Positions 2,636 through 15,411 of a stretch of DNA of 64,000 nt are shown piece after piece. Made by a program: the position numbers and the translations under genes. Location: positions 16,645-80,644 of the forward strand of contig CAMBDY010000010.1 of NCBI GenBank assembly GCA_945865525.1, read 5' to 3'. How positions within the stretch are numbered: the stretch's first letter is position 1; each line of letters starts with the position of its first letter. The notes beneath the pieces were generated by a model. It was given only the letters and a program-made list of their open reading frames with translations. It searched no databases and was not told where the DNA came from. The DNA is from Nitrospira lenta. Its GTDB lineage: Bacteria > Nitrospirota > Nitrospiria > Nitrospirales > Nitrospiraceae.

Positions 2636-3655
2636 TCAACCGGCTGGCTTTTGGATTGGGGCATCCGGCTTTGGCGCACGCAACGTACCCAAATACATCG
2701 TCACGGCCTTGGCTTCGTCATCGCTGAGCCCAAGTGCCGGCATTCTAGTTTGCGGCTTCATCGCCTGAGGATTTTTTATCCAGCGGTAAACCCAGGTCCC
2801 GTTCAAACGGAATCCTGCCCGATCGAGCGCTGGGCCGACCTTGCCGCCCTCTGCACCTATGCTATGGCAGGCGTTACAACCGTACTTGTTCGAATAGAGA
2901 CGTTTCCCGCGTTCCACCATCTCCGCTACCTGCTCTGGCTTTACGGTCAGGTCCGGTCTGGTAACGTTCACGCCTTTTCCAGGTCTGGTGACGAAATTGG
3001 TGACGAACGCCTGGGCCACGTTGAGTTCCTTTTTCGCTTGGACCATGACTGCCAGTTCTTTGGCGTAGGTGGAGTCGTCAGCTTCAACGTCATTAACGTT
3101 TAACTCTTTGGCCTTCTGTTCGGCGTCGTCATTCGCCTTCTTTTCGGCCACCTCATAGGCCTGCGTGGCCTGGTCTGACTTACTCTGCGCCGCTTGAAGG
3201 GCTGCTGCCAGCTCTTTCTTTCGTTCCTCGACTTTGAACTCCAGCTTCATTCCGTGGAGGCCACGAACGTAGCCGACAATCGCCCAGATCTCGTCTTCCG
3301 ACAGGGTGTACTTGAGGCTCGGCATGGTGGGTACGGCGAACTCGTCATCGCCGATCTTATCGCCACCGGGACTTGTGTCCTTCATGTCGCGGTAAATCGT
3401 ATAAAAAATCTCTTCGTCCTTGAAGGTGCCCATCTCCGACTTATTCGAGAGATCTTTGGGCTTCGGATCCGGCATCGACGACCAATTGAACCCTTCGTTC
3501 TGACGACCATTCTCACCATGGCAATGCATGCAATAGTGACTGTAGAGTGCACGCCCCTTCTGCTGCTGCTCGCTAGCGCAGCCACCGGCCATCATGGCCC
3601 ATACGCCGATCAATCCACCCACTGTTCCTAGTGCAAAGAGCCGAGCCACTTTCAT
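2636..3655 (-). CDS. Diheme cytochrome c (lipoprotein-like)
   Basis: Two CxxCH motifs (CMHCH, CNACH) separated by a charged helical linker; start MKVARLFALG with a signal peptide/GGC; 4-nt overlap with upstream gene. Confidence 0.85.
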   Translation of the reverse strand: MKVARLFALGTVGGLIGVWAMMAGGCASEQQQKGRALYSHYCMHCHGENGRQNEGFNWSSMPDPKPKDLSNKSEMGTFKDEEIFYTIYRDMKDTSPGGDKIGDDEFAVPTMPSLKYTLSEDEIWAIVGYVRGLHGMKLEFKVEERKKELAAALQAAQSKSDQATQAYEVAEKKANDDAEQKAKELNVNDVEADDSTYAKELAVMVQAKKELNVAQAFVTNFVTRPGKGVNVTRPDLTVKPEQVAEMVERGKRLYSNKYGCNACHSIGAEGGKVGPALDRAGFRLNGTWVYRWIKNPQAMKPQTRMPALGLSDDEAKAVTMYLGTLRAPKPDAPIQKPAG

Positions 3656-4479
3656 GCTGATTGCCCTTTCTTTAGCTTGCGGATCAGAATGAACTGAAAT
3701 CCAAAAGCCAAGCCCACGGCGAGAGCTGCGTAGTAATAACCAGAGTAGTCCGGTGGGGCTTCTGCACGGAAATACCACCAGGACGAGATCGCCTTTTGCG
3801 ACCCCTTTTCTTTCAGCTCACCGCTTATATCCTTCTTCCCGTCCCAGACAGCGAAGGCGATATTAATAAAACCACCCGTCTTGATCTGTGTATCTTCCTC
3901 CGGATGTTCGGTGGCGAGTGGCCGGGTGAAGAGCACTTTCCAGGTGCCGTTGGCATAGGCGCCCTTGGCTTTCACGTCCTGGTGCGTCTGCACGCTAAGC
4001 GTGCCGAAGCCCTTGGCATTCATGTCCATGCCTTTGGCGTCTTTGTTCTTCCAATACCAGATATTGACCGGACCGCCTTCCACCTGGGCCATTGGCTGAC
4101 CATGCGCAAAGTGGGCTTTCTTATCCCCCACCATGAATTCAATGGCAGCCGCATCGTCAGGATCTTCCGAGGGATCGGCATATTCCAGGAGGATGGTGAC
4201 GTTCGTCCCGTCATGCAGAGCCCGCACGCTCAAGTCACGGACCGTCGCTTCCAGAATGCGGGTTGGCCAATGAACTTGCGGGGACATCGGAAAGGTAGCT
4301 GGAGCTACGCTGCTCCAGACCGCGGCATTTGGATCATCGGCCGGCAAGAGGCCCTTTACCATCTGGGCGCGCACGGCAATGCTCTCTTGAGCTGCAACGG
4401 GCTCCACAGCCAAGAATCCCATAACCAGCAATACCCCGCCAATGACGCCCGTGGCGATTTCACTCACTCCATGCTTCAT
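3652..4479 (-). CDS. Ethylbenzene-dehydrogenase/type II DMSO reductase gamma-like (NxrC-like) heme b protein with C-terminal TM anchor
   Basis: N-terminal signal peptide, gamma-subunit-like beta domain (ILLEYADPSEDP...AAIEFMVG...PVNIWYWKN...GTWKVLFTRPL...INIAFAVWDG), C-terminal TM helix. Confidence 0.7.
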   Translation of the reverse strand: MKHGVSEIATGVIGGVLLVMGFLAVEPVAAQESIAVRAQMVKGLLPADDPNAAVWSSVAPATFPMSPQVHWPTRILEATVRDLSVRALHDGTNVTILLEYADPSEDPDDAAAIEFMVGDKKAHFAHGQPMAQVEGGPVNIWYWKNKDAKGMDMNAKGFGTLSVQTHQDVKAKGAYANGTWKVLFTRPLATEHPEEDTQIKTGGFINIAFAVWDGKKDISGELKEKGSQKAISSWWYFRAEAPPDYSGYYYAALAVGLAFGFQFILIRKLKKGQSA

Positions 4480-4606
4480 ACGTTTCGTCCTCTCTCTACT
4501 CTACTCACATCTCAGAGGATGGGCCACTGCGTCTTCACTTGCGTTTACCGAGCGCCTGCACGCATGCGCAGTGCGCGAGCACAAAGGCCTAAGGGCCTAC
4601 CCGCGC

Positions 4607-5326
4607 CTACTCCCAGGTCCTGGGAGATTGATGCGCGCCATCATACTCGCCCATGATGATTTTCCAGATCCACTCGTCAGGGAGCTCAACTTCCCAGCGC
4701 GGCATCGCAGACTTCCATGGCATACCCTCGATCGGGAGGCCCACGCCACCCTTCTTGATGCGCCAGAAAAGATAACTTTCCTGAAGCATAGCAATTGTCG
4801 TGGGGTCGGAGAAGTTGGCGGGAGGAGGATTGAATCCTCTGGAGGCTGGGCCCTTCCCGTCGAAATTTCCTCCGTGGCAAGGAGAACAGAATGCAGCATA
4901 GAAGCCCTTCCCCTGCTGAATCGCATCCGGCGTCTTGGCGATAGGATTCGACAAGCCGGTGTACTCGCCTGGCGGAGCCGGATGGATCGTCCGATTTTCG
5001 GCAGGCGGTGCCGCACTGATTGCCGTGCTATTGTAGGTCTGCCAGCCGACGATCAGAGGGAGCAGCAAGAGCACTCCGTACCGGAGTACTTGCAAATTAC
5101 CGATGTTCTCTCCGGTCAGGAACCGCTGGATCGGACCCCAGAAGGCGTCTTTAGACTCTCCGCTCAAGGTCGCGAAGATCACAATACCCGACGTCGTCAA
5201 CATCAGATACAGAAAGATCAGACTGGCGGGCAACGGTGCCGAGCCAGGTATATTGGGCACAGCGAACTTTAAAATCGCATAGACAATCCCGATCAAGATG
5301 ACCGGCTTAAGCAACGGACCCCCCAT
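4607..5326 (-). CDS. Membrane-anchored monoheme cytochrome c
   Basis: N-terminal TM helices followed by CSPCHGG heme motif and cytochrome c fold. Confidence 0.85.
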   Translation of the reverse strand: MGGPLLKPVILIGIVYAILKFAVPNIPGSAPLPASLIFLYLMLTTSGIVIFATLSGESKDAFWGPIQRFLTGENIGNLQVLRYGVLLLLPLIVGWQTYNSTAISAAPPAENRTIHPAPPGEYTGLSNPIAKTPDAIQQGKGFYAAFCSPCHGGNFDGKGPASRGFNPPPANFSDPTTIAMLQESYLFWRIKKGGVGLPIEGMPWKSAMPRWEVELPDEWIWKIIMGEYDGAHQSPRTWE

Positions 5327-5335
5327 ACGTTCCTC

Positions 5336-5959
5336 CTAGTGCGCTTGCACCACGTCCACTGGACCGGACTGAGCGACCTTCACCGGGGCGACTAGCGTCT
5401 GCCCCGGCACTTCGAGTTCAGCGACATTGACAGAAATCGGCTCCCCGCTCATTTGCTGCAGGAAAGCGATGACCGACAGAATTTCATTCTTGGACAGCCC
5501 AATTGGGTTCTTATTGATGTATGGCATCCGGGCCGGATATTCCTTTGGCTGGCCTCCGTGGCGATAGTCAAGATAGATGTAGGCCTGGGGCTGCGTCAAA
5601 CTTTCAAAGAGAAACTCGCGGCTCAGCTTAGCGCCGATTCCTTTCAAGTCGGGGCAGCGGGCTGATTCGCTGGGCCCAATGGTATGACACAGCGCGCATT
5701 GGCCCTTACTAAAGAAAATTTTCTGCCCGATTGCCGCCATGTCGGTCGGTGTTTTCACCGTGGCAATGTCGAACTTCTCCTCGATCGGCGGCAGGGATGC
5801 CATCTGCGGTACCGACAGCGCGACGAGGGTGAAGAGGCCGAGGACGATCCCAACGAATCCGATGACCCGGGCGAACTGCGCTCGAATCAGAAGCAGAATG
5901 AGGGTACCGCTCCCCACAATCATCAGACCGATCAACTGCAATGTAGCAACTTCGCTCAT
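5336..5959 (-). CDS. Membrane-anchored monoheme cytochrome c
   Basis: Two N-terminal TM helices, CALCH heme motif. Confidence 0.85.
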   Translation of the reverse strand: MSEVATLQLIGLMIVGSGTLILLLIRAQFARVIGFVGIVLGLFTLVALSVPQMASLPPIEEKFDIATVKTPTDMAAIGQKIFFSKGQCALCHTIGPSESARCPDLKGIGAKLSREFLFESLTQPQAYIYLDYRHGGQPKEYPARMPYINKNPIGLSKNEILSVIAFLQQMSGEPISVNVAELEVPGQTLVAPVKVAQSGPVDVVQAH

Positions 5960-5986
5960 AAGACTCCTCTTGCGAAATCGATCGCC

Positions 5987-7765
5987 TCAGCTATGCGGCG
6001 CCTTCGCCTTATCGCTCATCGTGGCCACCCAGAAGATAAACGCAGTAATCATGCAGAAAATAAATGTGTTCAAAGCCATGATCGCCGCGGCATACCCGAG
6101 CGCCGGCGAAAACGCATATGGCGAGGAATCCCGCATCACACCATAGACATGCCAATGAACGCGCGAGGACGACCTAGCGTAACCCATCAACGTCATGAGC
6201 AGGATGACCATGACCGCATTGAGGACAAGAGCATAGCCGGCGCGAGGCGGCATCTTCCCCCAGACCATTTCCGTCGTAGTTTTGGCACTCTTCAGCAGTA
6301 GAGCCGTCAACGGCGTAATCGTCAGCATGACGAAGAGCACAATCAGCACTTGCGAGGTCGAGAAGTAGTTGATACGGACAATGGCCGGCACAAAGTAGCC
6401 CCAGACGCCCAAGACAACGACGGCGATTCCCGCGAGGACCAGCAGAGAGTTCATAACCGCTTTCGCGGCCTTCGCCCATCCGGCAGTCTCTTCCTTGCCT
6501 GCGCGCCAATACATGATGAAGCTCATAAACGTGACGAGGATCATCAAGTTCGACACCGTCATTTTCGCCGACATGACGCCGAAGACTCCCAACAGCGGAT
6601 GGTGGGTGCCGCCCATCTTTCGCGCTTCTTCCAAGCTCGCCACGAGGGAGTGCGGCGTCATCCAGACACCAAGACACAAAAGCAGAATCAACAACATCGA
6701 CAGCATCGGCTTCCGATACTTCAGCTCGGAACCAGGGATGCGATAGGTGATCCCCAACCAGAAGTAATAATTCGAGCCGAGAAAGAGTACGCCGATGAGC
6801 ATGGCTTGCAAAATAAACAACCAGGAGAGGAAGCCGCCCATGAGCGTGATACCCATCTGCTGGTTGTACTGATAAACTTCACGCATAAGCCAGTAACCGG
6901 CAAAGGGGAGGGGCAAAAGGCCGAATACCCCAATGAAGTTGCCGACGTAGCCCATCCAATCGTAATGATCACGCTCTTCCGCGTTCCTGGCGGACAAGTA
7001 GCGAATCCCAGCATACGCGCCACAAATATACCCGCCCAGCACCACATTCGCGATCAGACGGTGAATGTTCACCGGCCACCAGGTTGGGTTCCAAGTCGCG
7101 GCCCAGGCCCTGGCAAGGTCCGAGCCCTCGGCGAGCACAACTGGACTCGCCTGGAACGTGGCCCAGGAGTTCGGCACGATCATGATGAAAAAGGCAAAGA
7201 AGTTCAGCATGAAACCAAGAAAAATATGAAACTTCTTCTTGCCGCCGTCCTGCATTGCATCCCAGCCATACCAATAGAGGTACAGGGTCGCAGTCTCAAC
7301 CAGGAAGAGTAGGCAATAGACGATGAACGAGGGGAAGAAAATATCGGTGAGGTAGTTCATCAACTTGGGATAGAAGGAAATCAGCAGGAACAACAGAATG
7401 CCGCCGAAGAGCGCGGTCGTGGCATAGGCAGAGGTGAGGAGCTTCGTAAACTCTTTAGCAAGTTTGTCGTAGCGTTTTTCGCCAGTCTTCCAGGCGACAA
7501 CTTCGCACAACCAGGCGAAGATTGGCACGCCCAACACAAACCCTGCGAGCAGCAGATGGAGCTGCGCAACAACCCACACGAGGTTGCGGCTGCCGATGTA
7601 GGGGATATCGCGATACTCGGTTGCGGCGGCTGGTGCGACATCGGCCCCGAAGGCCAGCGCGGGAAGGCTGAGGAGGCCCACGGCCCACAACAGCCCTGAG
7701 AGGGTCCCCCCATGGCCTTTGACGGCCCGGAGAAGTCTCTGAATCCATCCACCCTGTTGTTGCAT
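5987..7765 (-). CDS. Cytochrome bd-like oxidase subunit I (divergent, paralogue 1)
   Basis: Multi-TM protein; QLHLLLAGFVLG, FLVETATLYLYWYGWDAM and HRLIANVVLGG align by eye to CydA regions around H19, E107 and H186. ATG at 7765 preferred over GTG at 7789 because a GAGG-rich RBS precedes it. Confidence 0.75.
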   Translation of the reverse strand: MQQQGGWIQRLLRAVKGHGGTLSGLLWAVGLLSLPALAFGADVAPAAATEYRDIPYIGSRNLVWVVAQLHLLLAGFVLGVPIFAWLCEVVAWKTGEKRYDKLAKEFTKLLTSAYATTALFGGILLFLLISFYPKLMNYLTDIFFPSFIVYCLLFLVETATLYLYWYGWDAMQDGGKKKFHIFLGFMLNFFAFFIMIVPNSWATFQASPVVLAEGSDLARAWAATWNPTWWPVNIHRLIANVVLGGYICGAYAGIRYLSARNAEERDHYDWMGYVGNFIGVFGLLPLPFAGYWLMREVYQYNQQMGITLMGGFLSWLFILQAMLIGVLFLGSNYYFWLGITYRIPGSELKYRKPMLSMLLILLLCLGVWMTPHSLVASLEEARKMGGTHHPLLGVFGVMSAKMTVSNLMILVTFMSFIMYWRAGKEETAGWAKAAKAVMNSLLVLAGIAVVVLGVWGYFVPAIVRINYFSTSQVLIVLFVMLTITPLTALLLKSAKTTTEMVWGKMPPRAGYALVLNAVMVILLMTLMGYARSSSRVHWHVYGVMRDSSPYAFSPALGYAAAIMALNTFIFCMITAFIFWVATMSDKAKAPHS

Positions 7766-7790
7766 GCCCCTCACCTCATCATCTCTCACG

Positions 7791-8807
7791 TTACGGTTTC
7801 TTGGCGACAGGCGGAGCCGGCGCAGTTGCCGCCGGCATTTTCACTGCATTTGTGCCTGCCTTACCATTGCCTTTGCTCTTCTTGGCATTGACCGCGTCGG
7901 CTTCCGCCTTCTGCTGTTCCAGCGCCTCAACTTGCGCGGCAAGCTGCGCCAGCATCTTCTCGTCTTTATTCAGCGTCTCAACCGGTTTCAAAACCTGTGG
8001 CGCCTTCACCTCAGGCTTCTTACAGCATTCATGCGGGTGAGGGGTAAAAACCGGCAAAGACGACCAGAACAGGAGCGACAGGAGCACCGCCCCTCCGGTC
8101 AATGATGCCAACATCAACCCCTGGTCCGCCGGCACCCGCATCAGGTCCCAGCGGGCAATCAACTTTTCATAGCTCTCCGACGCCGGAGCGGCCGACTCCA
8201 CCGTGCCGCGGATGATCCGCCCCACAAGCCACAGACCAGCAATCGACAGACCCAGCAACATTCCTGTGGCTACCGTGCCCCAGAGGACTAGCTCAATACT
8301 GATTTTTTCCGCAATCGGTACGAACTTGAGAAAGTCCATCTCGAACAGGGAGTGGGAAATCTTAATCGCGGTATCCGTCGTGAAACTCACTGCCACCCAG
8401 AGGACCGGCAGAAAGAGGCCACCGACTAGCGCGCATTTCCACCAGAGCGTCAGCCCTAACCCCTCTTGCGGTTCACGCTTGAGCTGTTCGAGAAAAAATG
8501 TGCGGCCCACGACCCCGAGTGCCCAGATATCGATCGGAATCGACAAGAGGAACAGCAATGGAATGCCGACCCCTTCGCCGAGGTGCGACTCCAGACCGAG
8601 AGTAATCGCGGGAAGCGCGAACACGGTGACCGGACTCGCCAAGAGCATCAAGAAGGCGAGACCGATTCTCGTCTCAAAATGGACCATACCCAGCGATAGA
8701 AACAAGAGCACGAACGCCAGCTTGATCGGGAAACCCGTCCAGAAAGCAGGCCAAAGAATGCCAAGCCCGAGCTGCGTGGGACACATTGAGCCGCGTTCGT
8801 TACTCAT
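7791..8807 (-). CDS. Polytopic membrane protein of unknown function in respiratory cluster
   Basis: Several TM segments, HPHECCKK segment, then an Ala/Lys/Pro-rich tail; no family recognised. Confidence 0.75.
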
Positions 8808-8839
8808 AAGCAGGCCGAGTCCGTTCTACGAGATCGCCA

Positions 8840-9952
8840 CTAATCCAAAAACTCTCGGTTGATAACAGCAGAGATCGTGAAAATCAGGATCGCCGCCATG
8901 ACCACCGCCCATCCGATCAGCGCAACAGGGCGCTTGAAAATATTCCGTTCTGGATCTCGGTCAATGAAGGGCAACGCGGCTAGCAGAGCCATGAAGGCGC
9001 CAGGCAAGGCTATCGCCCCGACAAACTGCCCGAACTCGCCAGAGAACATCTTCAGACGCAGCAGCTGGAACAAGAACAAGAAGTACCACTCCGGCTCCGG
9101 ATGATAATCGCCCGGGTCAGGCGTCGCCTCTTCCAGCAAGACCACCGGCTCCCAGAAGGCCAGGGCACAGATACAGGCAAACACGGTTACCATCCCGACG
9201 ACGTCTTTCCAGATCTGCCGCGGGAAAAAATAGTCGGTCTTCGCCTTCAACTCTGCCGGCGTGCCCCGGAATGGGCCGGCTGGTCCTGCGGCCCTGAAGA
9301 GGAAGAGGTGCAACCCCGCCAACCCCATCAGGGCCGCAGGAAGCACCATCACGTGAATGACAAAAAATCGACTCAATGTCATTTGGCCTGGCGTCGCGCC
9401 TCCCTTGAGGAACCGCGCCATGAAGTCGCCCAGCAAAGGCGTTTTATCCATAATCTCGACGCCGACGGTCGTGGCCCAATAGGCCCGCTGATCCCATGGA
9501 AGCAGATAGCCCGTGAAGCCGAATCCCATGACGATGCCAAAGAGCGCCAGGCCCACCAACCAAATTAGTTCACGCGGCTTCTTATAGGCGCCCCAGAGAA
9601 AGACTTGGGACATATGGGCGAAGACGCAAACCACCATGGCCGTCGACCCCCAAAAATGGTAGCTCAGCAGAAACCAGCCATAGTCGACGTCATGCAGAAT
9701 GTATTGAGTGCTGGCGTAGGCATGGTCGGCGGTGGGCACATAATAGAACATCAGCAGCACACCGGTAATGGCCTGCATAATGAAGATGAATAGCAACGCC
9801 GACCCGAAGACATAGGCCCAACGAGACCCGCCAGGAACGGGTTCATTAAGCATCTTGGCAGCGAGCAGCTTCAGCCCAACTCGCTCATCGACAAAGTCGA
9901 TGATTTTTTCCACGATCGTTGCTGGCGCATGAGGAGAAAGGGGATGGCTCAT
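8840..9952 (-). CDS. Cytochrome b (bc1/b6f type, fused N- and C-terminal domains)
   Basis: ALLFIFIMQAITGVLLMFYYVPTADHAYAS, GYLLPWDQRAYWATTV, PEWYFLFLFQLLR motifs. Confidence 0.92.
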   Translation of the reverse strand: MSHPLSPHAPATIVEKIIDFVDERVGLKLLAAKMLNEPVPGGSRWAYVFGSALLFIFIMQAITGVLLMFYYVPTADHAYASTQYILHDVDYGWFLLSYHFWGSTAMVVCVFAHMSQVFLWGAYKKPRELIWLVGLALFGIVMGFGFTGYLLPWDQRAYWATTVGVEIMDKTPLLGDFMARFLKGGATPGQMTLSRFFVIHVMVLPAALMGLAGLHLFLFRAAGPAGPFRGTPAELKAKTDYFFPRQIWKDVVGMVTVFACICALAFWEPVVLLEEATPDPGDYHPEPEWYFLFLFQLLRLKMFSGEFGQFVGAIALPGAFMALLAALPFIDRDPERNIFKRPVALIGWAVVMAAILIFTISAVINREFLD

Positions 9953-10885
9953 CTAGACAATCCGTGTTTGGGACTTCGTCCCGGCTTTGAATTCCATGTC
10001 AATAATTTGCACTTCCCCGCTCGCGGAGACCTTAATCGGCAGCGGGTCGAGAGGGCGCGGTGCAGGACCGTCCAGGACCTTGCCGGACGCATCATAGATA
10101 CTCAGGTGACAGGGACAGAGGAACACTTGCCCGAGGACCTTATGCTGGCGCCACTTAAATCCGCATCCGAGATGGGGGCATTTACCGGAGAAGGCGACGT
10201 AGGGCACGTCCTTCTTATTGGTCCAGATGGTCTTCCCCAAGGCATCACGGAACTCCATATCTTTGCCTTGGTAGACTTTTTCGAGGACCGCAGGGGTCGC
10301 CTTTAAAACCCACACGTTCTTTTCAATCTCTGCTTCTGGCAGATAGGCCTCTTTAACCTTGCGCCTGAACTTGAACTGGGTGCCAGCGTCGTCCACCTTG
10401 ATCTTCCCAACATTACCAATCTTCAGCCAGCCGTTATCGAACGGGGCATACATTGGCTTCATCAAATACTTCAGCACAGGGAACGCCAGCGGCAACGCGA
10501 TAAAAAGGCCGATCACATGGGTCAAGTTTGCGAAAAATGTCCGCCGCTTGACGTTGCGCTCCAGCTCAGGGAACGGCACGAGCACTTCGCCAGGCGTGAC
10601 GTGTAGATGGTCTTCCAGGTGAGGAATCTCGACTTCATGCGTCGTGACATAGTCGTCGCGCTTGAACGGCGCGAAGGCTAAGAAATCCGTCTTGGTCATC
10701 GACAATTGCACCAGACCGTCCGTCACGGTCTCCACCGCACACATCGGCACTTGCCGATCCTCCGTGCCGCTGACCGACACGACAAGATCGCTGATCTCGT
10801 GCGACAGCGGATCGACGATGACCTTGGTGACTTCTCCGATTTCTTGATCGGCACCACGGACTTTTGATTTCAGTGTAGGCTGCAT
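9953..10885 (-). CDS. Rieske iron-sulfur protein with N-terminal PRC-barrel-like domain
   Basis: CPHLGCG...CPCHLS Rieske motifs; N-terminal VRGADQEIGEVTKVIVDPLSHEISDLVVSV resembles PRC barrel; start revised to ATG at 10885 (MQPTLKSKV). Confidence 0.85.
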   Translation of the reverse strand: MQPTLKSKVRGADQEIGEVTKVIVDPLSHEISDLVVSVSGTEDRQVPMCAVETVTDGLVQLSMTKTDFLAFAPFKRDDYVTTHEVEIPHLEDHLHVTPGEVLVPFPELERNVKRRTFFANLTHVIGLFIALPLAFPVLKYLMKPMYAPFDNGWLKIGNVGKIKVDDAGTQFKFRRKVKEAYLPEAEIEKNVWVLKATPAVLEKVYQGKDMEFRDALGKTIWTNKKDVPYVAFSGKCPHLGCGFKWRQHKVLGQVFLCPCHLSIYDASGKVLDGPAPRPLDPLPIKVSASGEVQIIDMEFKAGTKSQTRIV

Positions 10886-10886
10886 G

Positions 10887-11693
10887 CTACTTCTTCTTAA
10901 TGGGCTTTGGCGTAGCCACTGCTGTATTCTTGAATGTTCCCAGCCAGGAAGCGAGCGCCACGACGTCCTTCTCTTCCATGAGGTCCTTGTACTTATCCGG
11001 CATCTTGCCCTTCTCGTACTCCTTCTCAAAGCCCTCGGCCATAAAACTCTTGGGGTCGAGAATCTTCTGCTTGATCTCGTCAACCGAAAGGTAGCTGGCG
11101 ATATTATCCAACTCAGGACCGCGCTTCTTACCGCCCTCACCCTTTAGCTTGTGGCAGTTGTAGCACTCTTGTAGTTGCCACTGCTCCTCGCCCAACTTCA
11201 TAAAGTCTCCGGACGACGCGACGGTCGTCGCGGGAGGGGCACCTGGCCCGCCCGCCGCCTGATCCTTCGTCGCCTGGTCTCCGCCTAAATCCTTGAGCCG
11301 CGCCGACAAGACCTTCACTTGCTCGTCCAGCGCCTTAGCCCGCGCAAGCAATTCATCAGCCTTGCCCTGCTCGGTTGCAGCCCGCTTGGGTTTCAGGATC
11401 TTCTCGATCTTGCCCTTTTCGTCTTCGGGATCATATTGTGGCCACATCGAAGCGCCGGAAATATACACCGTGCAGAGCACGATATAAAACCCCACTAAGA
11501 CTCCCACGGACTTGATTCCGCTCATCGGCTTGACCGCCGGCGCATCCAGGATGATAAAGACGACAGCCCCCAGCATGGCATAGGCGAAAAACATCATCTG
11601 GAAGATGACGGGGAATTCGAACACCCTCGTAAAACCTACGAGCGCGCCACCCACCACTAGGCCAATCATCAACTTCTTAATTACGTTCCCCAT
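10887..11693 (-). CDS. Membrane-anchored monoheme cytochrome c
   Basis: TM helices near N-terminus, coiled-coil segment, CYNCH heme motif; start MGNVIKKLMIG at 11693. Confidence 0.82.
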   Translation of the reverse strand: MGNVIKKLMIGLVVGGALVGFTRVFEFPVIFQMMFFAYAMLGAVVFIILDAPAVKPMSGIKSVGVLVGFYIVLCTVYISGASMWPQYDPEDEKGKIEKILKPKRAATEQGKADELLARAKALDEQVKVLSARLKDLGGDQATKDQAAGGPGAPPATTVASSGDFMKLGEEQWQLQECYNCHKLKGEGGKKRGPELDNIASYLSVDEIKQKILDPKSFMAEGFEKEYEKGKMPDKYKDLMEEKDVVALASWLGTFKNTAVATPKPIKKK

Positions 11694-11762
11694 ACAAATC
11701 CTCTTTCCTTCAGGAGGCCTTCCACGCCTCGGGTACATGGCCCGACAGAGACAGGACTGCTT

Positions 11763-13430
11763 TTAGGCATGCCCCTTCGAATCGGAAGGCCGCAGAGTCA
11801 CGAGAATGGCAAAACTCACGACTGCATAAAAGACGACGGTAATCCCGGTGATCCACCAGGCGGCGTACGACAGCGTTGGCGTAAAGGACTCCGCGGTAAA
11901 ATCGGGCAGCAAATTGTACGTATGATAGTACTTCCGGAGCAGCGAGCGGACGGCGCCCATCAAGCCCATCGTCCAAATCGCGGTGAAAGCCAAAAAGATC
12001 AGGACGAATTGGGAAATGAAATCGATCTTCCCCCAGACAATCGTGCCCTGACTGATGGCTCGGTTATAAATCACATAATTGATGACTGTGACGAACACCA
12101 ACGTGAAGGCTGCGGAGTTCTTGGCCGGCATCAAGGCTAAGAAGTTCCAATCAGATGGCAACTCCAACTCCGCCACTAGCTTGGCGCCGGTGGGCACGAA
12201 TCCGTGCGGCGTCAGCCAAATGGCATCGCCCACGACCACCATCAAGAAACCAACCTTGATGACCGTGCGCGCCGACACGGTGAGCGGAATAAAGCGACCG
12301 AGGGTAAAAGGCGCGAGCAACATAGGTATCAAGAACGCGAGCGCTATCGGATCCGGGACTGCATAGTCTGTCAGTACCTTGGTCATGACCAAGGGGAGCA
12401 ACACCATCACGACAGGAGCCAGGATCGTCATCCGAACCTTCTCAACTCCTTCGATGCGCTTCATACTGAGCCAGATGTAATAGTTACTGCCTAGAAAAAT
12501 GAGCCCGATCATCGCGCCCTGCATTTCGAAGAACATCGAGAGCTGGTCGGCCATCATATAGGGACAGATTGAGGCATCGTAGTCGCAGAGCTCGTACGCT
12601 AAGAGATAGCCCATGAACGGAAGGAACAGCAATGCGCCTACACCGATCAGATTGCCGACAAAACCCATCCAATCGTAATAGGCCCGATCTTCGTCCTTCT
12701 TCGCCCCCATAAACATGTAGGCCGCGATCAAACCTGCCACAAACCCACCGAACGTCACGTTACCGACAAGACGGTGGAGGTTCAGCGGCATCCAGCTGTA
12801 GTTGGAGATCTTGTCCCACAGGGATGCGGTGGCAAGAAACTCTTGCGGCGAAATCCCCTCGGCTTTCACCGGGGTATTCATAAACGACGTCGGCCCGTCG
12901 ATCACGAAGAGCGTGATCGTACCGATCAGATTCAAAAGCACCCCTAGGGCAATATGGCGGGCCTTCTTCTCGCCCTTCCAGGCATCCCAGGTATAAAAAT
13001 ACATGTACAGCAAGATCGTTTCGCTGATGAACAACAGTGGATAGATTACGGCGAACAGCAGGTAGAAATGATTGATAAGCCATGTCGTAAACTGTGGATA
13101 GGCCGCCAGCAACACGAAAATAAAGAGGCCCCCAGTCAGGGCGGTCATACTGTAGAGAATAACCGTCACTTTCGTGACCTCTTTGGCTAAGCGATCGTAT
13201 CGGGGATCCTGCTTCCGATACCCCAACCACTCTGAGATGACGACAAAGATTGGAGCACCGAGAATGAACCCAGCAAATAGGATGTGAAGCTGGGCGACGA
13301 CCCATACCGCGGTCCGGTTCCCCATGTAGGGGAACTCCACGGATGGCACGGGAGCCTGGGCATATGCCACTCCGCCGAACAACGCTAGAAGCGCGAATGC
13401 CGCCACGAGACTGCGCTGCCACATTTTCAT
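11763..13430 (-). CDS. Cytochrome bd-like oxidase subunit I (divergent, paralogue 2)
   Basis: Clear homologue of 5987-7765: VWVVAQLHILFAGFILGAPIF, ISETILLYMYFYTWDAW, HRLVGNVTFGG, YYDWMGFVGNLIGV, LGSNYYIWL. Confidence 0.78.
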   Translation of the reverse strand: MKMWQRSLVAAFALLALFGGVAYAQAPVPSVEFPYMGNRTAVWVVAQLHILFAGFILGAPIFVVISEWLGYRKQDPRYDRLAKEVTKVTVILYSMTALTGGLFIFVLLAAYPQFTTWLINHFYLLFAVIYPLLFISETILLYMYFYTWDAWKGEKKARHIALGVLLNLIGTITLFVIDGPTSFMNTPVKAEGISPQEFLATASLWDKISNYSWMPLNLHRLVGNVTFGGFVAGLIAAYMFMGAKKDEDRAYYDWMGFVGNLIGVGALLFLPFMGYLLAYELCDYDASICPYMMADQLSMFFEMQGAMIGLIFLGSNYYIWLSMKRIEGVEKVRMTILAPVVMVLLPLVMTKVLTDYAVPDPIALAFLIPMLLAPFTLGRFIPLTVSARTVIKVGFLMVVVGDAIWLTPHGFVPTGAKLVAELELPSDWNFLALMPAKNSAAFTLVFVTVINYVIYNRAISQGTIVWGKIDFISQFVLIFLAFTAIWTMGLMGAVRSLLRKYYHTYNLLPDFTAESFTPTLSYAAWWITGITVVFYAVVSFAILVTLRPSDSKGHA

Positions 13431-13468
13431 GATGTTTCGCCGCCCCTCCTCACGTGATTAGAATCTGC

Positions 13469-14026
13469 CTACTTGCCTGCCGGTGCCGGAGCTGCTGCTG
13501 GAGCCTCTGCCGAGGTCGGCGCGGCGACCGCGCCTGCCGCCGGCAGGCTCGCCGCATCAACCCAGGCGTGCTTCTCGGGGTCCCAGCCCTTGCCAGCCAA
13601 GCCGAAATTCCGCTCAAACAACACGATCTTCCAGCGATCTTCCTCTGACAACTTGCTCTTCCAAGCCTTCATCTTCGTGTTCGGCACCCCTTCGGCAATC
13701 CGCCAGAACCACACGGAATCGGAATAGAGCGCCATCCGATCACCCTTCCGGAAATCACGGGCACCCGCCTTGACGGGCTTGCCATCCTTGCCGTGACAGC
13801 TCGCACAGTTCACATCGGGGTTTGTCTCACCAATGAAGAGCTTCCGCCCTTCTTCGAGCTTGGCCGCATCGGTCCACCAGCCAGCCGGCATATGGCTTGC
13901 CGCATATTCAGCAGGAGCGGGCGGAGGCGGAACAACCGGCCCGTCGCTTTCCCCTCCACCGCAGGCCACCATGAACAGCCCCATCCCCAACACAACCGCC
14001 AATTGCGTAGCTTTCATCGGCTTCAT
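13469..14026 (-). CDS. Monoheme cytochrome c lipoprotein
   Basis: Signal peptide with lipobox-like MVACGGG, CASCH motif, Ala/Pro-rich C-terminus. Confidence 0.85.
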   Translation of the reverse strand: MKPMKATQLAVVLGMGLFMVACGGGESDGPVVPPPPAPAEYAASHMPAGWWTDAAKLEEGRKLFIGETNPDVNCASCHGKDGKPVKAGARDFRKGDRMALYSDSVWFWRIAEGVPNTKMKAWKSKLSEEDRWKIVLFERNFGLAGKGWDPEKHAWVDAASLPAAGAVAAPTSAEAPAAAPAPAGK

Positions 14027-14082: not shown

Positions 14083-14135
14083 CGAAAAAAGCGCTTTTGC
14101 CAAGAGGGATAATCACCCCCCACAAAAGCGCTTAT
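14083..14135 (-). terminator. Rho-independent terminator candidate
   Basis: Inverted repeat AAGCGCTTTTG (14089-14099) / CAAAAGCGCTT (14123-14133); on the minus strand the stem is followed by TTTTTTCGTTTT. Lies downstream of the 14225-14764 gene. Confidence 0.55.
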
Positions 14136-14224: not shown

Positions 14225-14764
14225 TTATGTTCGTCGCTTCCCCTGAGACTGGCCTCGTTTCCGTCCCTGCGTCCGCCGTGACCGGAGCATTTTTGCCCCG
14301 ACAAACCCGCCGACTACGACCGCTGCAGCCCCCAACCCCAGATAGACCCACTGCGGGACCCGCTCTCTATCATGGATACAGCCGGTCCCAAAATGAACCT
14401 GAATCTTGCGCTCGGTCTCGAGATCCTTCGGGTCAAACAAAATTTTCTGCTGCTGCCGCTCTTCCCTAGCTTCAATCAACAATGGATCGCCAAGATTATC
14501 GTTATGGAGGTGAAATGTCGCTTTATAGTATCCCTCTCCATCCGTCTTGACGATCTGCCCGTAGGAGATTCGCGTATCCTTGACGAGCACGTCAATATTC
14601 GATGCCCCGCTTCCATCAGTCCCGCAGACGAAACCTTCGACCGTAAACCGATGATCCGCTTCATGCGTCGCAAGCACAACCGACGGAAGGCCGCCCACCA
14701 TGGCCATGACTAGGATCCACTCCCGCCATGGCGACTCACTCTGTACGATCTGTCTGCGCCTCAC
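14225..14764 (-). CDS. Hypothetical exported protein with Ig/carboxypeptidase-regulatory-like domain and C-terminal TM helix
   Basis: VEGFVCGTDGSGASNIDVLVKDTRISYGQIVKTDGEGYYKATFHLH pattern; C-terminal YLGLGAAAVVVGGFVGAKML. Confidence 0.6.
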   Translation of the reverse strand: MRRRQIVQSESPWREWILVMAMVGGLPSVVLATHEADHRFTVEGFVCGTDGSGASNIDVLVKDTRISYGQIVKTDGEGYYKATFHLHNDNLGDPLLIEAREERQQQKILFDPKDLETERKIQVHFGTGCIHDRERVPQWVYLGLGAAAVVVGGFVGAKMLRSRRTQGRKRGQSQGKRRT

Positions 14765-15015: not shown

Positions 15016-15411
15016 CTACAGGATTCCGCGTGTCTTTGCGTCAGCTGCGACCCGTTGCACTTCGGCTTGCCGCTCTGACTCTTTCTTAGAAATCCAGGCC
15101 TCCCAGGATTTCCCTGTCGCGGTATCTTCACCAGTGAAGGCGATCGCCAGGATCTCATTATAACAAATTTTTTGGGCAAGGGAACTGCCGGAGGGAAACA
15201 ACTCAAGCGAGGATTCGGAGCCGCGCACTTGCCGGTTAAACAGATAACCAACGAGGGACTGGCCGGACTTTAGCACGATTGTCACGTCGCCGCGATAGTC
15301 AAACGCCAGCTCCACCGCTTCCGTCAACTCAGCGAGCGAAGTAGGCCGAAACACACGGCCCTCGAGCGAGCCAGCCACACTATCGACACTATGATTTTTC
15401 GTGTCAGTCAT
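15016..15411 (-). CDS. Conserved hypothetical protein
   Basis: 131-aa ORF with plausible composition; no family recognised. Confidence 0.55.
   Translation of the reverse strand: MTDTKNHSVDSVAGSLEGRVFRPTSLAELTEAVELAFDYRGDVTIVLKSGQSLVGYLFNRQVRGSESSLELFPSGSSLAQKICYNEILAIAFTGEDTATGKSWEAWISKKESERQAEVQRVAADAKTRGIL

What the first reader, a model, noticed from the sequence alone, without database searches (positions are those of the whole stretch)
2636..14026. Ten-gene respiratory cluster combining bc-complex parts, five c-type cytochromes and two bd-like proteins
One strand carries, with small gaps or overlaps: diheme cyt c, NxrC-like heme b protein, two membrane-anchored cyt c, bd-like I, unassigned membrane protein, cytochrome b, Rieske, another cyt c, a second bd-like I, and a cyt c lipoprotein. 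No heme-copper oxidase subunit and no recognisable CydB is present. Interspersing cytochrome b/Rieske between two bd-like subunits suggests one physical complex or a quinol-cytochrome c-oxygen (or reverse electron flow) module rather than separate enzymes. Divergent bd-like oxidases are known from Nitrospira (established knowledge); the joint complex is my inference.
Basis: partly seen in the sequence, partly recalled or inferred. Interest (0 to 1): 0.75.

Follow-up and report, generated by a model that had tools for sequence, protein, structure and literature searches.

The report
Nitrospira complex III–oxidase gene cluster
This is the well-described respiratory gene cluster of Nitrospira bacteria, which probably passes electrons from nitrite either to oxygen or back to quinone; it is real and very well conserved, but the cluster and the idea that its proteins form one supercomplex were already published.

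Summary
Eleven genes (not ten) lie on the minus strand at 2636-14026: five c-type cytochromes, an NxrC-like heme-b protein, two bd-like CydA homologues, cytochrome b, Rieske and one unassigned membrane protein. This nearly complete genome (1.80 Mb, 99.74%) has no CydB, no heme-copper oxidase over its cut-off and only one cytochrome b, so the cluster is its only recognisable complex III and its main oxygen-reductase candidate.

The gene order is complete in 37 of 39 fetched Nitrospirales loci, in N. defluvii and N. moscoviensis, and largely in two other families of the class. However, the cluster and the supercomplex idea are published: Mundinger et al. 2019 (CIII_1, bd-like_1, bd-like_2, alt_NxrC_1), with the OR-N CydAA' oxidase discussed in later papers.

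New details found here: one Nitrospirales family keeps the bc genes and OR-N1 but lacks OR-N2, the NxrC-like gene and NXR; two other class families have OR-N2 without OR-N1; two families keep the NxrC-like gene without NXR. These patterns argue against an obligate OR-N1/OR-N2 pair and against a fixed NXR link. The physical joint complex remains untested. Verdict: already known, with useful tests added.

The parts
13469..14026 (-). gene a: monoheme cytochrome c, predicted lipoprotein
   Evidence: PF13442 34.7 bits, one CxxCH in 40/40 homologues, lipobox MVAC
11763..13430 (-). gene b: bd-like CydA homologue (bd-like_1; OR-N1 by inference)
   Evidence: PF01654 80 bits; equivalents of CydA H19, H186, E107 kept; forms its own clade
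10887..11687 (-). gene c: membrane-anchored cytochrome c
   Evidence: PF00034 35 bits, one CxxCH, predicted N-terminal TM helices
9953..10885 (-). gene d: Rieske protein with N-terminal PRC-barrel-like domain
   Evidence: PF00355 38 bits; motif in 40/40; PRC-like match in 10 of 16 members
8840..9952 (-). gene e: cytochrome b, b6-like, the only one in the genome
   Evidence: PF00033 166 bits; two His pairs; PEWY 40/40
7791..8807 (-). gene f: unassigned membrane protein with TPHPH motif after the last TM helix
   Evidence: found in 140 of 147 Nitrospirales genomes, next to cyt b; no family or fold match
5987..7789 (-). gene g: bd-like CydA homologue (bd-like_2, NIDE0901 type, OR-N2), the best oxygen-reductase candidate
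   Evidence: PF01654 71 bits; H396 and H545 invariant in 38/38; PDB fold hits are CydA
5336..5959 (-). gene h: membrane-anchored cytochrome c
   Evidence: PF00034 35.5 bits, one CxxCH
4607..5326 (-). gene i: membrane-anchored cytochrome c
   Evidence: PF13442 31.5 bits, one CxxCH
3652..4479 (-). gene j: NxrC-like heme-b protein with C-terminal TM helix (alt_NxrC_1)
   Evidence: PF09459 88 bits; TIGR03477 113 bits, below cut-off
2636..3658 (-). gene k: diheme cytochrome c, predicted lipoprotein
   Evidence: two CxxCH in 40/40; PF00034/PF13442
14085..14133 (-). hairpin plus T run, probable terminator separating the cluster from the upstream gene
   Evidence: z-score -4.4, 0 of 200 shuffles fold as well
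14225..14764 (-). small anchored protein of unknown family, frequent upstream neighbour
   Evidence: also beside the cluster in f4 and in f8/f9 loci; no Pfam match

Best explanation
The cluster is the Nitrospira complex III plus complex IV operon. Genes c-d-e (with f) encode a cytochrome b6-type quinone/cytochrome c oxidoreductase. Gene g encodes a bd-superfamily protein (OR-N2, NIDE0901 type) without a quinol site, which most likely reduces O2 with electrons from c-type cytochromes. Gene b encodes a second CydA-like subunit (OR-N1). Cytochromes a, h, i, k and heme-b protein j carry electrons from periplasmic donors, including nitrite oxidoreductase. Nitrite electrons go mainly to O2, and a fraction is pushed back to quinone through the bc complex for CO2 fixation. 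Shown: gene content, conservation, ligand residues, lack of alternatives in this genome. Inferred: electron routes, O2 chemistry, any physical contact.
For: Only complex III and no other recognised oxygen reductase in a 99.74% complete genome. By tally, 57 of 124 high-quality Nitrospirales genomes have neither CydB nor a full-length heme-copper oxidase. Heme ligands of the N-terminal CydA half are conserved and quinol residues K252/E257 are replaced. The fold model of g hits CydA chains. Cyt b and Rieske motifs are intact in 40/40. Conserved gene order. High joint transcription in N. moscoviensis (PMC6606698).
Against: No biochemical proof of O2 reduction was found in the papers read. The C-terminal half of the bd-like proteins does not align with CydA, and the g model has low confidence. 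Family f4 lives without g and without any other detected oxygen reductase; its lifestyle is unknown.
Confidence: 0.7

Rival explanations
1. All eleven proteins form one stable physical complex (a III/IV supercomplex, possibly docking NXR through j), as Mundinger et al. 2019 suggested and the first reader re-derived.
For: Tight, deeply conserved gene order; joint high transcription in N. moscoviensis (PMC6606698).
Against: g-i-j are missing in f4 while the rest remains; f7/f10 have g without b; f8/f9 keep j without a detected NXR. Inside the order, flanking genes without clear respiratory role are syntenic too.
Confidence: 0.35
2. OR-N1 (b) and OR-N2 (g) form the CydAA' heterodimer oxidase, separate from the bc complex; clustering only reflects co-regulation.
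For: Proposed in the literature (PMC12342949, PMC10839748); no CydB present; both genes in one cluster in nearly all Nitrospirales.
Against: b occurs without any g-type protein in f4, and g without any b-type protein in f7 and f10. Other bd-like proteins could substitute as partners there, so this does not exclude the pair in Nitrospira.
Confidence: 0.4
3. The bd-like proteins are not oxygen reductases but quinone- or cytochrome-linked electron-transfer subunits used for reverse electron flow.
For: Close homologues are reported in anaerobic anammox bacteria (PMC3578206). f4 has bd-like proteins but no detected NXR or other oxygen reductase.
Against: This genome would then have no recognisable oxygen reductase. 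The quinol residues are absent from both proteins. g carries H396, which the bd-like_3/4 paralogues lack.
Confidence: 0.2

Closest known systems
N. moscoviensis CIII_1 / bd-like_1 / bd-like_2 (CIV) / alt_NxrC_1 region (Mundinger et al. 2019, PMC6606698)
   Same: Same genes in the same order a-k at the N. moscoviensis locus (L080); two cyt c genes between bd-like_2 and alt_NxrC_1; the supercomplex is already proposed.
   Different: Nothing essential. This genome is much smaller and has no second complex III, CydAB or other oxidase detected.
OR-N type CydAA' oxygen reductase (Murali et al. 2021, cited in PMC10839748 and PMC12342949)
   Same: Two CydA-like proteins, no CydB, no quinol-binding residues.
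   Different: Partners separate in f4, f7 and f10. The original paper was not held, so the OR-N1 label of b is inferred.
bd-like_3/bd-like_4 cluster with alt_NxrC_2 (Nitrospira, Nitrospina, anammox; PMC6606698, PMC3578206)
   Same: Same kind of module: bd-like protein, membrane cyt c, NxrC-like protein; present on contig C5 of this genome.
   Different: No bc genes beside it, and its bd-like proteins lack H396.
Canonical cytochrome bd quinol oxidase CydAB
   Same: CydA fold and the H19, H186 and E107 equivalents.
   Different: No CydB, no quinol residues, C-terminal half not alignable.
Manganitrophus TO_3/TO_4 complexes (PMC9040806)
   Same: A bd-like protein combined with complex III-like genes; L147, L149, L152 and L153 (class families f7/f10) show such a layout.
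   Different: Different gene order and no OR-N1.

Membership tests
Cytochrome bd superfamily, subunit I (CydA-like) | PF01654 above curated cut-off | tested here: met
   71.2 and 80.1 bits against 26.2, N-terminal half only
Cytochrome bd superfamily, subunit I (CydA-like) | Heme ligands H19 and H186 and acidic E107 conserved | tested here: met
   g H78, H243, E165; b H49, H219, E137; His invariant, E 0.95-1.00
Cytochrome bd superfamily, subunit I (CydA-like) | C-terminal ligands M393 and E445 | tested here: inconclusive
   C-terminal half not alignable; model coordinates not available
Canonical CydAB quinol oxidase | CydB present | tested here: not met
   No PF02322 match in the genome
Canonical CydAB quinol oxidase | Quinol residues K252 and E257 | tested here: not met
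   Aligned to hydrophobic residues in both proteins
OR-N CydAA' oxygen reductase | Two CydA-like proteins, no CydB, no quinol site | tested here: met
OR-N CydAA' oxygen reductase | OR-N1 and OR-N2 always occur together | tested here: not met
   f4 has b without g; f7 and f10 have g without b
OR-N CydAA' oxygen reductase | Reduces O2 with electrons from cyt c | not testable with these tools
   Needs biochemistry
OR-N CydAA' oxygen reductase | Placement in the reference OR-N1/OR-N2 clades of Murali et al. 2021 | not tested
   Paper and reference set not held; g identified by position as NIDE0901/bd-like_2 type
Cytochrome bc/b6f complex | Cyt b with two His pairs and PEWY; Rieske CxH...CxxH | tested here: met
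Cytochrome bc/b6f complex | Cytochrome c1 or f subunit | tested here: inconclusive
   Gene c is an adjacent membrane cyt c, but matches no c1/f family
NXR / type II DMSO reductase gamma subunit (NxrC) | TIGR03477 above its cut-off | tested here: not met
   113 bits against 169.85; PF09459 is above its cut-off
NXR / type II DMSO reductase gamma subunit (NxrC) | Occurs only with NXR | tested here: not met
   f8/f9 keep j without a Nitrospira-type NxrA match
Heme-copper oxidase | COX1 subunit in the cluster or genome | tested here: not met
   Only a 29.9-bit partial match (cut-off 34.8) in a 426-aa protein on another contig

The most novel reading that the evidence does not exclude
OR-N1 (gene b) is not the obligate partner of OR-N2 but a CydA-derived subunit bound to the cytochrome b6/Rieske complex. 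OR-N2 is the oxidase on its own or with other partners. The f4 lineage (OR-N1 plus bc, no OR-N2, no NXR, no other oxygen reductase detected) would be the natural test case.
Probability: 0.25. Interest if true: 0.6.

Novelty: already known. Interest (0 to 1): 0.35.

Why it matters
Nitrospira are among the most widespread nitrite oxidisers, yet none of the papers read here shows their terminal oxidase biochemically. In this small genome the cluster is the only recognisable complex III and the main oxygen-reductase candidate, so it is a clean test case. The lineages in which the modules come apart give concrete predictions about which subunits belong together.

Tried and rejected
(1) Chance neighbours: rejected by the conserved order.

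(2) Gene f as CydB or a known bc subunit: no Pfam, NCBIfam or PDB sequence match. The best fold hit was a chain of a cytochrome bd structure (9r2g_D), but at E 0.72 and TM 0.20, so it is meaningless.

(3) Gene f as two genes in distant relatives: the two tblastn pieces are one ORF lacking a segment that the window protein has.

(4) Global hhalign of bd-like against CydA failed; local mode worked for the N-terminal half only.

(5) H396 and H545 as a strict oxidase signature: H545 also occurs in bd-like_3 type proteins of f4 and f7 and is Tyr in some OR-N2; H396 is better but also occurs in some phylum-level homologues.

(6) The split cluster in G073 as a real rearrangement: the scaffold has N blocks and is 78% complete, so it was discounted.

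(7) The missing cyt b in G106 is a contig break.

(8) The promoter scan found fewer sites than shuffles and was not used.

(9) No paper held mentions PRC-barrel, Rieske and cytochrome b together; no paper on native complexes of Nitrospira appeared among the hits listed.

Murali et al. 2021 was not held.
Full report
WHAT IS THERE. The window lies in a small, nearly complete genome (G000, 1.80 Mb, 39 contigs, 99.74% complete). Its closest named relatives are Nitrospira MAGs, several from freshwater. Its size resembles the streamlined Great Lakes Nitrospira (median 1.83 Mb, PMC9239080); that it belongs to them is only a guess. Two NxrA-like ORFs of 1149 aa fit a nitrite oxidiser. The eleven genes, called a to k in the order of transcription, run from 14026 down to 2636 on the minus strand with gaps of -7 to 127 bp. 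A strong hairpin with a T run at 14085-14133 separates them from the upstream gene, so the cluster probably starts its own transcript; this was not tested.

GENE CONTENT. Pfam and NCBIfam assign five c-type cytochromes (a, c, h, i, k), a Rieske protein (d), cytochrome b (e), an ethylbenzene-dehydrogenase/NxrC-like heme-b protein (j) and two PF01654 proteins (b, g). Gene f matches nothing. Its AlphaFold model (mean pLDDT 77, pTM 0.63) has no significant PDB match. Cytochrome b has His pairs spaced H-x13-H and H-x14-H, and PEWY is present in 40/40 homologues. The Rieske motif is intact in 40/40. The Rieske protein carries an N-terminal PRC-barrel-like domain (best E 2e-4; 20.0 bits against a cut-off of 21.2 in the window copy).

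GENOME-WIDE CONTEXT. The genome has no CydB, no COX1 over the cut-off and a single cytochrome b. It has four PF01654 proteins: the two here and two on contig C5 beside cyt c and NxrC-like genes, the layout of the published bd-like_3/bd-like_4 cluster. Among 124 high-quality Nitrospirales genomes, by my tally have CydB and three more have only a full-length heme-copper oxidase; 57 have neither. In many Nitrospirales the cluster is thus the main recognisable oxygen-reductase candidate, in line with PMC12342949.

CONSERVATION. Cyt b is found in 143 of 147 Nitrospirales genomes and gene f in 140. Among 39 fetched loci the order a-k is complete in 37. It is also complete in N. defluvii (L079) and N. 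moscoviensis (L080). Families f8/f9, outside the order but in the same class, retain the cluster: a-k complete in L141, and in L146 with gene b hit in two pieces, but without a detectable f in L142 and L143. There the HpnH-like and 15016-15411 flanking genes are not found and UbiA only in L141, so the linkage outlasts regional synteny. Inside the order those flanks are conserved as well, so synteny there is weaker evidence than it looks.

WHERE THE MODULES COME APART. Family f4 (four genomes, 73-96% complete) has a-b-c-d-e, only the C-terminal part of f, then h and k; g, i and j are missing (two loci read). Where a second PF01654 protein is found in f4 it belongs to the bd-like_3 clade, not to the g clade, and a partial hit in G016 is type b. 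f4 also has no detected heme-copper oxidase, CydB or Nitrospira-type NxrA. Conversely, families f7 and f10 have g-type proteins and no b-type protein found in the whole genome (six genomes, 95-99% complete); f11 and f12 look the same. Some of these loci combine g with Rieske and cyt b in another order. Families f8/f9 keep j although no Nitrospira-type NXR was found. Each absence rests on MAGs, but the f4, f7 and f8/f9 patterns repeat across several genomes.

THE TWO bd-LIKE PROTEINS. Both keep the equivalents of CydA H19, H186 and E107, and neither has the quinol residues K252 and E257, in agreement with what PMC3578206 reports for bd-like oxidases. The model of g, although of low confidence (mean pLDDT 60), matches only CydA chains at E <= 0.001. 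H396 is present in all g-clade members compared and absent from the b clade and the bd-like_3/4 types; H545 is less consistent. By position g is the bd-like_2/NIDE0901 type: two cyt c genes separate it from the NxrC-like gene, as PMC6606698 describes. The OR-N2 label for g and the OR-N1 label for b follow from this and from PMC12342949; Murali et al. 2021 itself was not held.

MECHANISM. The best reading is a reversible cytochrome b6-type complex III (c, d, e, f) and a cyt c-fed oxygen reductase (g, perhaps with b), supplied by cytochromes a, h, i, k and heme-b protein j. [quoted passage not shown] Gene content, conservation, ligands and lack of alternatives are shown. Electron routes, O2 chemistry and physical contacts are inferred. 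One supercomplex is possible (0.35), but the module losses show that it is not obligatory in all relatives.

COMPARISON AND NOVELTY. The cluster, its high transcription and the supercomplex idea are in Mundinger et al. 2019 (PMC6606698), and the OR-N CydAA' view is in later papers. The finding is therefore already known.

Noticed in passing
window 10600-10885 (gene d, N-terminal part): The Rieske protein carries an N-terminal PRC-barrel-like domain (PF05239 match in 10 of 16 members), an unusual architecture for which no paper was found in the library.
   Followed up: partly
L034, L035, L191, L192 (family f4): A Nitrospirales family with OR-N1 plus bc genes but no OR-N2, NxrC-like gene, NXR, CydB or heme-copper oxidase detected; how it respires is unclear.
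   Followed up: partly
L141-L143, L146 (families f8/f9): The NxrC-like gene is kept in the cluster although no Nitrospira-type NxrA was found, which speaks against a fixed role as NXR anchor.
   Followed up: partly
L005:1066-2346: A 426-aa membrane protein with a weak partial COX1 match (29.9 bits, cut-off 34.8), with similar matches in many Nitrospirales genomes; probably not a canonical oxidase subunit.
   Followed up: partly
window 14225-14764: A 179-aa protein of no known Pfam family sits upstream of the cluster and is also found there in f4 and f8/f9, where the other flanks are mostly lost; its role is unknown.
   Followed up: partly
window 7791-8807, around residues 40-75: Gene f carries an extra segment here that is missing in more distant Nitrospirales, and f4 keeps only a short protein matching its C-terminal part.
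   Followed up: partly
L009 (G000 contig C5): A second cluster with two more bd-like proteins, membrane cyt c and a longer NxrC-like protein, the layout of the published bd-like_3/bd-like_4 region.
   Followed up: partly
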